From an uncultured Bacteroidota bacterium (GTDB lineage Bacteria > Bacteroidota > Bacteroidia > Chitinophagales > Chitinophagaceae): DNA of 8,745 bases. The notes below the pieces were generated by a model that saw only the letters and a list, made by a program, of their open reading frames with translations, did not search any database and was not told the origin of the DNA. This document shows, in pieces, positions 1 through 6,647 of this stretch. The translations under genes were made by a program, and so were the position numbers. How positions within the stretch are numbered: the stretch's first letter is position 1; each line of letters begins with the position of its first letter. The stretch is taken from assembly GCA_946480675.1 (NCBI GenBank), contig CAMLKS010000075.1, positions 1-8,745 of the forward strand. The letters run 5' to 3'.

Positions 1-261
1 CAGTACGCGCTCTACTTCACCACCAAAGTCAGAGTGACCCGGAGTATCGATAACGTTAATCTTAACGCCTTTATAGTTTACCGAAATGTTTTTGGCGAGG
101 ATGGTGATACCACGCTCACGTTCCAGGTCGTTGTTGTCCATTATCAGTTCACCTGTCTCCTGGTTATCACGAAAAACTTTTGTCGCGTGGATGATTTTAT
201 CAACCAGCGTCGTTTTACCGTGGTCAACGTGCGCAATAATTGCAATGTTACGAATATCCAT
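1..261 (-). CDS. typA: Translational GTPase TypA/BipA, N-terminal fragment (cut by left window edge)
   Basis: Only the first 87 codons are present; the gene continues beyond the left edge. The product is a ribosome-binding GTPase of the EF-G/LepA superfamily, known from other bacteria to act in 50S subunit assembly and stress or cold adaptation. The G-domain motifs are visible: P-loop AHVDHGKT at residues 10-17, switch I RERGITI at 48-54, and G3 DTPGH at 72-76. The stretch [15 protein letters not shown] and the start [18 protein letters not shown] are characteristic of TypA rather than LepA or EF-G. The ATG at 261 gives the family's usual N-terminus. No Shine-Dalgarno sequence precedes it, which is normal in Bacteroidota. 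A consensus promoter lies at 332-364, and a terminator-like hairpin separates it from the start codon. Family assignment is near certain from this fragment. Confidence 0.95.
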
Positions 262-275
262 ATACTTGATTGTCT

Positions 276-317
276 TAATAAAACGGCCCCTTCTTTACAA
301 CAGATAAGGAAGGGGCC
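276..317 (-). terminator. Rho-independent terminator-like hairpin after apaG, lying in the typA leader
   Basis: Read on the minus strand, arms 317-306 (GGCCCCTTCCTT) and 296-285 (AAAGAAGGGGCC) pair over 12 positions with one mismatch around a 9-nt loop. A T-rich run (GTTTTATTA, 284-276) follows. This is the expected form of an intrinsic terminator for the recX-apaG transcript. It also lies downstream of the putative typA promoter and 15 nt from the typA start codon, so typA transcripts would have to read through it. Confidence 0.8.
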
Positions 318-331
318 TCATATTTGCCGCG

Positions 332-364
332 CAAAGGTACGGAAATAAGATGTTATAACGACAA
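332..364 (-). promoter_or_regulatory. Bacteroidota-type promoter for typA
   Basis: On the minus strand, TTG (364-362) is followed after 22 nt by TACCTTTG (339-332). This matches the Bacteroidota sigma-ABfr consensus TTG-N17-23-TAnnTTTG. Transcription would start near 325-328, giving a leader of about 65 nt that contains the hairpin at 285-317. The same spacing and -7 box occur upstream of mnmG, which supports the call. Confidence 0.7.
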
Positions 365-1318: not shown

Positions 1319-3187
1319 TTATCTGCCCATGTAAACCATCAGTATCTGCACATCACTTGGGTTTACCCCACTTATCCTGCTGGCCTGGCCTAATGTCCTG
1401 GGTTTTATTTTTATTAGTTTCTGGCGGGCTTCCGTAGATAATGCCGAAAGTTTATCATAATTGAAACTATCCGGTATGATAAGGTCCTCCAGCGAAGCCA
1501 TTTTCTTTACCAGCTCCTTTTCTTTTTCAATATACACATCATACTTCAGTTGTATCTCCGCCTGCTCTAAAGCCAGTACATCCGTTTCATTCAGTGTTTC
1601 TTTCAGTTGCGGTAAAGCTTCCTGCATGTCTTTTAATGTTATGCCCGGACGTAGTAACAGTTTCAAAGCCCTTGCACGCTCCGTCAGCGGTGTGCTGCCT
1701 ATAGATTCCAGGTAAGTATTTACAGCAGAGGGGTCGACGGGATATTCGGCCAGTTTTTCTTTTACTTTGGCTACTTTTTCCTGCTTTTCTTTTACTAATT
1801 GCAGGCGTTCATCGCTTGCCAGGCCTATTTCGTGGCCCAGCGGTGTTAAGCGAAGGTCTGCATTATCCTGCCTTAGCAGTGTTCTGAATTCTGCACGGCT
1901 GGTAAACATGCGATATGGCTCATCGGTACCTTTATTTATCAGGTCATCTATTAATACTCCAATGTAGGCATCGCTCCTTTGCAATACTACAGGCTCTAAA
2001 TCATGTACATTTCTATGTGCATTAATGCCGGCCATTAGGCCTTGGCAAGCAGCTTCTTCATATCCTGTAGTTCCATTTATTTGCCCGGCAAAGAACAAAT
2101 TTTTTATCAGCTTGGTTTCCAAAGTAAATTGCAGCTGAGTAGGCGGGAAATAATCGTACTCTATAGCATAGCCGGGGCGGAAGAAACGACAATTTTCAAA
2201 ACCGGGTACTAATTTCAAGGCTTTATATTGTACATCTTCAGGTAAAGAAGTACTGAAGCCATTTACGTATATCTCCACTGTATTCCATCCTTCCGGTTCC
2301 ACAAAAAGCTGATGCCGCTCTCTTTCAGCAAAACGGCTTATTTTATCTTCAATACTAGGGCAATATCTTGGTCCTGAACCTTTTATACGTCCCTGGTACA
2401 TAGGTGATTTTTCAAAACCCGTCTTTAAAATCTCATGTACCGTTTCATTGGTGTAAGTTATCCAGCAATGGCGTTGACCTTTAGACTTTACTTTTTCTAT
2501 TGGCAGATAAGAAAAGCCTACTATCTCTTCATCACCTTCCTGAATTTCCATCTTACTATAGTCAAGGCTACGGCCATCTATCCTTGGTGGGGTACCTGTT
2601 TTAAGCCTTGCGCTCTCAAAACCCAATGAAACAAGCTGTTCCGTAAGCCCTGTGGCACCTTTTTCTCCCATTCTGCCACCACCAAACTGCTTTTCACCTA
2701 TATGGATAACGCCATTTAGAAAGGTTCCATTGGTTAATACTACCGCCTTTCCATATATCGTTTGACCCATGCCGGTTATTACTCCCTTAATTGTTCCACG
2801 TGAAACAATGAGTTCTTTCACCATATCCTGCCAAAAGTCAATATTAGGGGTTGCTTCCAGCATTTCCCTCCACGTAGATGCAAATAACATCCGGTCATTC
2901 TGTGTACGTGGGCTCCACATGCCCGGTCCTTTAGACTTATTGAGCATGCGGAACTGTATCATGCTCTTATCACTCACTATACCACTATACCCACCCAAGG
3001 CATCAATTTCACGTACAATCTGTCCTTTGGCTATGCCACCCATAGCCGGGTTACAACTCATTTGGGCAATGGTTTGCATATTCATAGTGATCAACATCAC
3101 TTTAGAACCCATATTTGCAGCAGCAGCAGCAGCTTCACAGCCTGCGTGGCCTGCTCCTACTACTATAACATCATATTCAGGAAACAT
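1319..3187 (-). CDS. mnmG: tRNA uridine-5-carboxymethylaminomethyl modification enzyme MnmG (GidA)
   Basis: This is a 622-residue FAD enzyme that, with MnmE, installs the (carboxymethyl)aminomethyl group on U34 of certain tRNAs using methylene-tetrahydrofolate. It is full length for the family (about 620-630). Visible features are the Rossmann dinucleotide motif VVGAGHAGCEAA (residues 9-20), SCNPAMGGIAKG with Cys45, the first family signature GPRYCPSIEDKISRF (272-286) with Cys276, and the second signature AGQINGTTGYEEAA (368-380). Cys45 and Cys276 correspond to the functional E. coli Cys47 and Cys277. The start at 3187 (MFPEYDVIVVGAGHAG) gives the normal N-terminus; an in-frame ATG at 3238 would add 17 unconserved residues and lies upstream of the promoter box. 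Codons for residues 127-132 contain a parS site. The gene ends just before its own terminator. In many bacteria mnmG lies near oriC, and the context here agrees. Confidence 0.98.
   Translation of the reverse strand: MFPEYDVIVVGAGHAGCEAAAAAANMGSKVMLITMNMQTIAQMSCNPAMGGIAKGQIVREIDALGGYSGIVSDKSMIQFRMLNKSKGPGMWSPRTQNDRMLFASTWREMLEATPNIDFWQDMVKELIVSRGTIKGVITGMGQTIYGKAVVLTNGTFLNGVIHIGEKQFGGGRMGEKGATGLTEQLVSLGFESARLKTGTPPRIDGRSLDYSKMEIQEGDEEIVGFSYLPIEKVKSKGQRHCWITYTNETVHEILKTGFEKSPMYQGRIKGSGPRYCPSIEDKISRFAERERHQLFVEPEGWNTVEIYVNGFSTSLPEDVQYKALKLVPGFENCRFFRPGYAIEYDYFPPTQLQFTLETKLIKNLFFAGQINGTTGYEEAACQGLMAGINAHRNVHDLEPVVLQRSDAYIGVLIDDLINKGTDEPYRMFTSRAEFRTLLRQDNADLRLTPLGHEIGLASDERLQLVKEKQEKVAKVKEKLAEYPVDPSAVNTYLESIGSTPLTERARALKLLLRPGITLKDMQEALPQLKETLNETDVLALEQAEIQLKYDVYIEKEKELVKKMASLEDLIIPDSFNYDKLSALSTEARQKLIKIKPRTLGQASRISGVNPSDVQILMVYMGR
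2792..2807. other. parS: parS-type ParB/Spo0J binding site inside mnmG
   Basis: TGTTCCACGTGAAACA matches the widely conserved chromosomal parS consensus TGTTnCACGTGAAACA at every position. It is a near-palindrome with one asymmetric pair. On the mnmG strand it encodes Val128-Ser-Arg-Gly-Thr132, in a loop between conserved blocks of the protein. parS sites inside coding genes near the origin are known from Bacillus and others. A chance exact match of 16 bases in this window is of order 10^-6. ParB binding itself is inferred; parB is not in the window. Confidence 0.9.
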
Positions 3188-3193
3188 AAGCTG

Positions 3194-3226
3194 CAAAGGT
3201 AAGTTACAATTCTTTACTATTATCAA
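3194..3226 (-). promoter_or_regulatory. Bacteroidota-type promoter for mnmG, abutting the start codon
   Basis: TTG (3226-3224) is followed after 22 nt by TACCTTTG (3201-3194) on the minus strand, the same boxes and spacing as upstream of typA. Only six bases separate the -7 box from the mnmG ATG at 3187. If transcription starts 4-7 nt after the box, the mRNA is leaderless or nearly so. Confidence 0.7.
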
Positions 3227-3264
3227 GTTTAATGGCAATATAGGCCAACATTATAAATATTCTA

Positions 3265-3280
3265 TGTTCCACGTGGAACA
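3265..3280. other. parS: parS-type ParB/Spo0J binding site, perfect 16-bp palindrome
   Basis: TGTTCCACGTGGAACA is a perfect palindrome and differs from TGTTCCACGTGAAACA by one base; both halves are the TGTTCCAC variant of the parS half-site. It lies in the intergenic region, one base from the terminator of the secreted-protein gene and about 39 bp upstream of the mnmG -33 element. With the copy at 2792-2807 it forms a pair 473 bp apart, which strengthens both calls. Bound ParB here could affect mnmG transcription (inference). Confidence 0.88.
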
Positions 3281-3281
3281 A

Positions 3282-3310
3282 AAAAGCCTCCCAGATCTTG
3301 GGAGGCTTTT
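3282..3310. terminator. Hairpin terminator after the secreted-protein gene
   Basis: Arms 3282-3293 (AAAAGCCTCCCA) and 3299-3310 (TGGGAGGCTTTT) form a perfect 12-bp stem with a 5-nt loop. On the minus strand the stem runs into a T-run (TTTTTT, 3286-3281) and follows the stop codon at 3328 by 17 nt. This makes it the intrinsic terminator of the secreted-protein gene. The A/T flanks also allow function on the plus strand, but no plus-strand gene ends here. Confidence 0.88.
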
Positions 3311-6354: not shown

Positions 6355-6363
6355 TGTGGATAT
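6355..6363 (-). promoter_or_regulatory. DnaA box, one mismatch
   Basis: ATATCCACA on the minus strand differs from TTATCCACA at the first base. It is the leftmost box of the cluster and lies about 50 bp upstream of the nadA start, so DnaA binding might also affect nadA transcription (inference). Confidence 0.55.
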
Positions 6364-6431
6364 GGGGAAACAAAATTGTTATTCCTATTGCAAATTAACC
6401 GTTTTTATTTAGTTAACTGTTTATTAGTTCA

Positions 6432-6440
6432 TTATCAACA
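6432..6440 (+). promoter_or_regulatory. DnaA box, one mismatch
   Basis: TTATCAACA differs from TTATCCACA at position 6. This variant is a common functional form of the box in other bacteria. Confidence 0.55.
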
Positions 6441-6485
6441 CTTATAAACCGCTACAATAAGGGATACCCACATAAAATGAGCATT

Positions 6486-6494
6486 TGTGGATTA
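6486..6494 (-). promoter_or_regulatory. DnaA box, one mismatch
   Basis: TAATCCACA on the minus strand differs from TTATCCACA at position 2, keeping the full CCACA half that DnaA domain IV contacts. Confidence 0.5.
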
Positions 6495-6583
6495 CTGAGG
6501 TACTTGATAAATAACCGGATGGGAATATCGTAGAACGATGTTGAAAATCGAGTTGATTACAGGAACAAAAAATATCATTTCAC

Positions 6584-6592
6584 TTATCCACA
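6584..6592 (+). promoter_or_regulatory. Consensus DnaA box
   Basis: TTATCCACA, the exact high-affinity DnaA box. I see no other exact copy on either strand of this window. It lies 47 bp before the single-mismatch box at 6639 in the same orientation. Confidence 0.8.
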
Positions 6593-6638
6593 ACCATAGT
6601 AAGGGATAAACTGACATTTTTAAATCTGCTTTTCACAA

Positions 6639-6647
6639 CTATCCACA
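6639..6647 (+). promoter_or_regulatory. DnaA box, one mismatch
   Basis: CTATCCACA differs from TTATCCACA at the first base only. It borders the most AT-rich stretch of the region, a position typical of the box next to the unwinding element. Confidence 0.6.

What the first reader, a model, noticed from the sequence alone, without database searches (positions are those of the whole stretch)
2792..3280. Pair of parS centromere sites 473 bp apart at the 5' end of mnmG
TGTTCCACGTGAAACA (2792-2807) matches the ParB/Spo0J parS consensus exactly, and TGTTCCACGTGGAACA (3265-3280) is a perfect palindrome one base different. Two such 16-mers so close together are essentially impossible by chance. With oriC about 3.5 kb to the right, this would be the nucleation point of the ParB-DNA partition complex in this organism. 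parA and parB are not within the window, so the centromere appears separated from its protein genes by at least several kilobases.
Basis: partly seen in the sequence, partly recalled or inferred. Interest (0 to 1): 0.82.

Follow-up and report, generated by a model that had tools for sequence, protein, structure and literature searches.

The report
Chromosome centromere written inside an enzyme gene
Two short DNA sites that probably anchor chromosome segregation lie at the mnmG gene of this bacterium, one of them inside the coding sequence, where relatives keep it so strictly that it appears to set the enzyme's amino acids at that spot.

Summary
Confirmed: two zero-mismatch parS 16-mers lie at 2792-2807 and 3265-3280, 473 bp apart; about 4e-5 exact matches are expected in the window. 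The window's own genome is not held. In the sister species G001 (MnmG 99% identical) they are the only two sites at up to one mismatch, and one canonical ParB is encoded with ParA on another contig. parS beside mnmG is common in Bacteroidota (121 of 156 family loci, 52 of 65 others). In 14 of 14 single-contig family genomes parB lies 0.72-3.31 Mb from mnmG.

29 of 155 family genes carry it at this codon, in MnmGs down to 58% identical. Their codons 127-131 never vary synonymously (mean over the gene 0.43), and 1 of 126 non-carriers, a decayed site, shares residues S-R. In seven relatives every intact-core site found lies inside mnmG. The centromere appears to have rewritten a patch of a tRNA-modifying enzyme. 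ParB binding is untested.

The parts
2792..2807 (-). Intragenic parS (TGTTTCACGTGGAACA on the mnmG strand), codons 127-132 of mnmG, encoding V-S-R-G-T at residues 128-132
3265..3280 (.). Intergenic parS, perfect palindrome, 78-93 nt before the mnmG ATG
1319..3187 (-). mnmG/gidA, tRNA uridine-5 carboxymethylaminomethyl modification enzyme, 622 aa
3281..3310 (-). Terminator-like GC-rich hairpin with T tract of the upstream gene, abutting the intergenic parS
   Evidence: fold of a 42-nt stretch, -19.5; not called by the consensus scan
6355..6647 (.). Candidate oriC: five DnaA-box-like 9-mers (one exact, four with one mismatch) between nadA and the SurA/PpiC-type gene; candidate only

Best explanation
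The two 16-mers are the chromosomal centromere (parS) of a Chitinophagaceae bacterium. ParB, made from a distant parAB operon, loads on them as a CTP clamp and spreads over the mnmG/oriC neighbourhood; ParA then segregates the origin and SMC is loaded there (inferred from known ParABS systems). One of the two sites is embedded in the mnmG reading frame at a beta-hairpin turn. Selection for ParB recognition has fixed both the codons and the residues V-S-R-G-T there (codon and residue conservation are shown; the cause is inferred). The chromosome thus uses part of an enzyme gene as centromere.
For: Exact parS consensus; the pair is unique genome-wide in the closest held relative. That relative has a canonical ParB in a parA-parB operon and an SMC. 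Exact sites occur in 71 of 147 family genomes, the reversed control pattern in 1 of 147. Of 24 genomes scanned, 23 have exact sites, in each case on one contig within about 3 kb. Sites lie at mnmG in 121 of 156 family loci and 52 of 65 other Bacteroidota loci; 20 control palindromes hit 0.00 and 0.10 loci on average. In-frame site: 29 of 155 unique family mnmG at the same codon; synonymous identity 1.0 at codons 127-131 against a mean of 0.43 over 543 columns, next best among 293 columns of 4- or 6-fold residues 0.62. Residues S/P-R at 129-130: 29 of 29 carriers and 1 of 126 non-carriers, a decayed site. 33 of 34 intragenic sites share one frame. Model: strands 123-129 and 132-138, turn between.
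Against: No binding, ChIP or segregation data. The window's own genome is not held; ParB and genome-wide uniqueness come from a sister species (90% DNA identity over 4758 bp). 35 of 156 family loci and 13 of 65 others show no site at up to 1 mismatch near mnmG (some loci are cut by contig ends). In G041 exact sites lie on two contigs; its mnmG contig ends inside the gene, so adjacency cannot be judged. One-mismatch matches also occur away from mnmG in several genomes (G004; G028, G030, G039, G105, G121, G133, G164; G097, G140), and the reversed control pattern scores 0-4 per genome at that level, so a lone one-mismatch site is weak evidence. oriC position is supported, not shown.
Confidence: 0.88

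Rival explanations
1. Both 16-mers are ParB sites, but their main role is to let ParB regulate mnmG, not to act as centromere.
For: The intergenic copy lies between an upstream terminator-like hairpin and the mnmG ATG. In P. aeruginosa, parS3/4 next to promoters repress genes (PMC5521831, passages).
Against: They are the only sites at up to 1 mismatch in the closest relative's genome, so no other centromere candidate of this type is left there. The same paper says that the genes next to intragenic parS1/2 are not repressed at native ParB level. Upstream distance to the ATG varies from about -25 to beyond -1400 among relatives.
Confidence: 0.06
2. V-S-R-G-T is selected at the protein level in MnmG, and the parS-like DNA in the gene is a by-product.
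For: The site is in one frame and at one codon in all 29 carriers.
Against: Protein selection does not fix codons: 28 of 29 carriers have GTT [TC]CA CGT G[GA]A ACA (the 29th, L002, ends ACC), though in these genes TCA is 10% of Ser and CGT 21% of Arg codons. Non-carriers mostly have K/E-D/N at 129-130. A second site in three genomes gives V-P/S-R-E-T at residues 535-539, elsewhere in the protein.
Confidence: 0.03
3. Chance occurrence of palindromic 16-mers.
For: About 0.6 one-mismatch matches are expected per 3.3 Mb, and matches away from mnmG are seen at that level.
Against: 3.5e-5 exact matches expected in the window; conserved position over dozens of genomes.
Confidence: 0.01

Closest known systems
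Chromosomal ParABS of Bacillus subtilis (Spo0J-parS)
   Same: Same 16-bp consensus (PMC7614844 passage), origin-proximal cluster, canonical ParB family
   Different: Only two sites in the closest genome, both at mnmG; in 14 of 14 single-contig family genomes parB is 0.72-3.31 Mb from mnmG. That B. subtilis parAB lie near its sites is recalled
Pseudomonas aeruginosa parS1-4
   Same: Sites close to oriC, parS1/2 intragenic and parS3/4 intergenic (PMC5521831 passages), so an intragenic parS is not new in itself
   Different: The passages seen report no site conserved across a family at one codon or setting residues of a conserved enzyme; the rest of the paper was not read
gidA(mnmG)-gidB-parA-parB gene cluster of many bacteria (recalled)
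   Same: mnmG as neighbour of the partition locus
   Different: Here parAB are elsewhere while parS is at mnmG; that the cluster is the ancestral order is recalled, not tested

Membership tests
Chromosomal ParB-parS centromere | 16-bp palindrome matching TGTTNCACGTGNAACA | tested here: met
   two sites with 0 mismatches; consensus in PMC7614844
Chromosomal ParB-parS centromere | Sites clustered, not scattered over the genome | tested here: met
   in the closest relative only: 2 of 2 sites are this pair; own genome not held
Chromosomal ParB-parS centromere | ParB (CTP motif, HTH) and ParA encoded in the genome | tested here: met
   in relative G001; 151 of 157 family genomes have a TIGR00180 match. 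Own genome not testable. Motif names recalled
Chromosomal ParB-parS centromere | Located near oriC | tested here: inconclusive
   local skew minimum and box cluster, G121 switch near mnmG, G002 only a broad plateau and no box cluster near mnmG
Chromosomal ParB-parS centromere | ParB binding, CTP-dependent clamp loading, segregation phenotype | not testable with these tools
   needs bench work
MnmG/GidA | GIDA domain and C-terminal domains at full length | tested here: met
   PF01134 E 4.1e-163, PF21680, PF13932; 3cp8 E 1.8e-208

The most novel reading that the evidence does not exclude
In part of the Chitinophagaceae the whole chromosomal centromere is carried inside the coding sequence of one tRNA-modification enzyme (both sites in G040, G090 and G096; the only intact-core site in G019, G119, G028 and the complete genome G002). 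ParB recognition, not enzyme function, has set the amino acids of turns and loops of MnmG, and in the family the parAB genes lie some 15-45% of a chromosome away.
Probability: 0.6. Interest if true: 0.72.

Novelty: new variant of a known kind. Interest (0 to 1): 0.6.

Why it matters
Here a cis-acting segregation element seems to have been fixed inside a reading frame over deep divergence, dictating residues of a conserved enzyme; the contest between DNA-level and protein-level selection becomes directly testable by synonymous recoding. It also marks mnmG as a common centromere address in Bacteroidota, with parAB acting from most of a megabase or more away in this family. The full-text searches listed no paper whose title or abstract start describes parS at mnmG or in Bacteroidota; several listings were capped (15 of 26, 12 of 172, 12 of 79) and most subscription papers, including Livny et al. 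2007, are not held, so priority is not established.

Tried and rejected
Considered and set aside: chance, protein-level selection for V-S-R-G-T, a purely regulatory ParB operator (see rivals). Tried without a firm result: placing oriC by GC skew in the complete genome G002 (cumulative skew nearly flat from about 3.2 Mb to 0.2 Mb, no DnaA-box cluster near mnmG); AU test for a single origin of the carriers (not finished); consensus terminator scan (none, although folds a hairpin); Livny et al. 2007 on parS distribution (not held; its reference was seen in a reference list); literature searches (listings only; passages only of PMC5521831, PMC7614844, PMC13342612 and PMC8357415). Number of gains: the trees need 4 and 5 changes, but long branches meet (L341 with L344, L342 with L343), so one old gain with losses and two or more gains cannot be told apart.

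Rows dropped: 3 of 211 loci had mnmG codons identical to another's; of the 15 loci, L345 and L348 (taken as repeats of genes already in) were left out of the counts, and L349 (split mnmG) too from those; of 147 genomes with an mnmG match, G057, G137 and G103 (partial genes) were not fetched. For the distances I used the genomes whose mnmG contig is at least 0.98 of the rounded genome size among those fetched (14); an earlier hand list of 11 had overlooked G022, G075 and G114. Where one search reports two ParB matches (G149) only the best is used.

Full report
OBSERVATION. The window holds two exact matches to the parS pattern TGTTNCACGTGNAACA, at 2792-2807 and 3265-3280, and none other at up to three mismatches (at that loose level 18 of 200 shuffles also reach two matches). 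From base composition 3.5e-5 exact matches are expected in the window, 0.013 in a 3.3-Mb genome, and 0.59 at up to one mismatch in such a genome. The first site is identical to the B. subtilis consensus printed in PMC7614844 (passage). The genes are, on the minus strand, the start of a translational-GTPase-like ORF (by its sequence; family name recalled), an ApaG-domain protein, RecX, MnmG, a PA-domain protein with a Por-secretion tail and NadA, and on the plus strand a SurA/PpiC-type isomerase. The site at 3265 lies 78-93 nt upstream of the mnmG ATG (3187), right after a terminator-like hairpin. The site at 2792 lies inside mnmG, 380 nt from the ATG, codons 127-132.

WHOSE DNA. No genome is held for the window. 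Its MnmG is 99% identical to that of L001, a contig filed as Azovibrio restrictus XYLBin2; the next hits are mostly Chitinophagaceae/Bacteroidetes records at 87-70%, so the label looks wrong. Over 4758 bp the DNA is 90% identical, so L001's genome G001 is a sister species. In G001 (3.3 Mb) the same two sites are the only ones at up to one mismatch.

PARTNERS. G001 has one TIGR00180 ParB, preceded by a ParA ORF, on contig C65; mnmG is on C48. By sequence it is an ordinary chromosomal ParB (PDB 7bnk, E 1.5e-59; Spo0J 1vz0, E 1.7e-51). An SMC is present in G001, G002 and G121. In the family, 151 of 157 genomes have a TIGR00180 match, 150 over the cut-off. Fourteen genomes with mnmG and best ParB on one contig of at least 0.98 of the genome size give, on an assumed circle, 0.72 (G075, G121), 0.73 (G022), 0.74 (G030), 0.86 (G002), 0.89 (G149), 1.06 (G127), 1.27 (G093), 1.30 (G124), 1.72 (G114), 1.81 (G122), 1.84 (G026), 2.24 (G012) and 3.31 Mb (G063), i.e. 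15-45% of the contig. Only G002 of these carries the in-frame site; carrier G102 has 1.05 Mb between them on a partial contig.

PHYLUM-WIDE ADDRESS. 52 of 65 non-family Bacteroidota loci and 121 of 156 family loci have at least one site at up to one mismatch within -1000..+2100 of the mnmG ATG; 20 control palindromes of the same composition hit on average 0.10 and 0.00 loci. Exact sites occur in 71 of 147 family genomes against 1 of 147 for the reversed pattern. Outside the family, sites are often at about -25 and -70, and in many flavobacterial loci also just downstream at about +1870. In one search, 23 of 24 genomes have exact sites, each set on one contig within about 3 kb; G041 has them on two contigs (its mnmG contig ends inside the gene). 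One-mismatch matches away from mnmG occur in several genomes, and the reversed control gives 0-4 per genome at that level. Loci without a near site exist (35 and 13; some cut by contig ends), among them 6 of 6 titled Saprospiraceae or Lewinellaceae (L017, L029, L033, L035, L042, L052).

THE SITE INSIDE THE ENZYME. Of 155 unique family mnmG, 29 carry a site at up to one mismatch at exactly codon 127 (26, three more; total). Carriers differ widely: median pairwise MnmG identity 76%, lowest 58%. Yet codons 127-131 never vary synonymously (identity 1.0; T132 0.93), against a mean of 0.43 over 543 codon columns; among 293 columns of 4- or 6-fold residues the next best is 0.62. Flanking codons 126 and 133 are ordinary (0.21, 0.38). 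28 of 29 carriers have GTT [TC]CA CGT G[GA]A ACA; L002 ends ACC. The residues follow the DNA: carriers have S/P-R-G/E-T at 129-132. Of 126 non-carriers, 91 have K and 17 E at 129, 58 D and 36 N at 130; only L137, whose site has decayed to two mismatches, has S-R. 33 of 34 intragenic sites, in the family and outside, are in the same frame, V-S/P-R-G/E-T; one of them is at another place in a Cryomorphaceae gene (L077, +1475); the exception, L057, is a one-mismatch match. In an AlphaFold model of the window's MnmG (mean pLDDT 87, 42 sequences) strands 123-129 and 132-138 form a hairpin with the turn at 130-131. Some carriers are near-duplicates (window/G001, L011/L156, L150/L151, L144/L145), so 29 is not 29 independent cases.

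GENOMES WITH NO OTHER SITE. G019 and G119 have one site at up to one mismatch in the whole assembly, the one in mnmG. G002, titled a complete genome, likewise has one, with one mismatch; two two-mismatch matches lie upstream. G028 has one exact site, in mnmG, plus a one-mismatch match with a broken CACGTG core. G040, G090 and G096 have two each, both inside mnmG: codon 127 and residues 534-539, which in the model of the window's protein fall at the junction of helices 526-532 and 537-548. The others appear to be draft assemblies, so missing sites cannot be excluded.

HISTORY. On MnmG trees built without the site's columns, carriers (L137 counted as one) need 4 changes (shuffled mean 25) or 5 (shuffled mean 28). 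A starred group of 29 rows holds 25 of them with four non-carriers. L181, L198, L335 and L341/L344 fall outside it. One old gain with losses, or a few gains at the same codon, both fit; the one-clade test did not finish.

MECHANISM. Shown: sequence, position, codon and residue conservation, presence of ParB/ParA/SMC in relatives. Inferred: ParB binds both sites, spreads, and ParA/SMC act from there. An intragenic site may be transcriptionally harmless: in P. aeruginosa native ParB represses genes at intergenic parS3/4 but not at intragenic parS1/2 (PMC5521831, passages). One parS can suffice: the same paper says binding to at least one of four sites is enough for segregation, and PMC7614844 heads a section with a single site being necessary and sufficient for ParA control (passages). 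A site inside a frame is also shielded from indels, which may explain why codon 127 stays put while upstream sites range from about -25 to beyond -1400; this last point is speculation.

ORIGIN. The candidate at 6355-6647 has five DnaA-box-like 9-mers (Poisson about 7e-8 for 300 bp, not corrected for choosing the place) and a local skew minimum. In G121 the skew turns from negative to positive between the 175-190 and 190-205 kb stretches, with mnmG at 178-180 kb. G002 is ambiguous, and only three of nine relatives scanned have a dense box cluster in the fetched locus.

Noticed in passing
L001 (JANLJF010000048.1): Record titled Azovibrio restrictus carries a Chitinophagaceae-type mnmG region: the MAG appears mislabelled.
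   Followed up: partly
L017, L029, L033, L035, L042, L052: 6 of 6 Saprospiraceae/Lewinellaceae loci show no parS-like site at up to 1 mismatch in the fetched stretch; their centromere may lie elsewhere or have another sequence.
   Followed up: no
L076, offsets -666, -550, -433, -315 from the mnmG ATG: A Flavobacterium has four TGTTCCACATGGAACA variants at 116-118 bp spacing next to canonical parS sites: an expanded, periodic array.
   Followed up: no
G092: Seven ParB-family matches in one Chitinophagaceae genome, where most have one.
   Followed up: no
window 1-357 versus L001 7835-8191: The left end of the window matches L001 at 96%, but about 3 kb further from mnmG than collinearity predicts: an insertion/deletion of about 3 kb between the sister species.
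   Followed up: no
window 3281-3310: Terminator-like hairpin whose T tract runs directly into the intergenic parS.
   Followed up: partly
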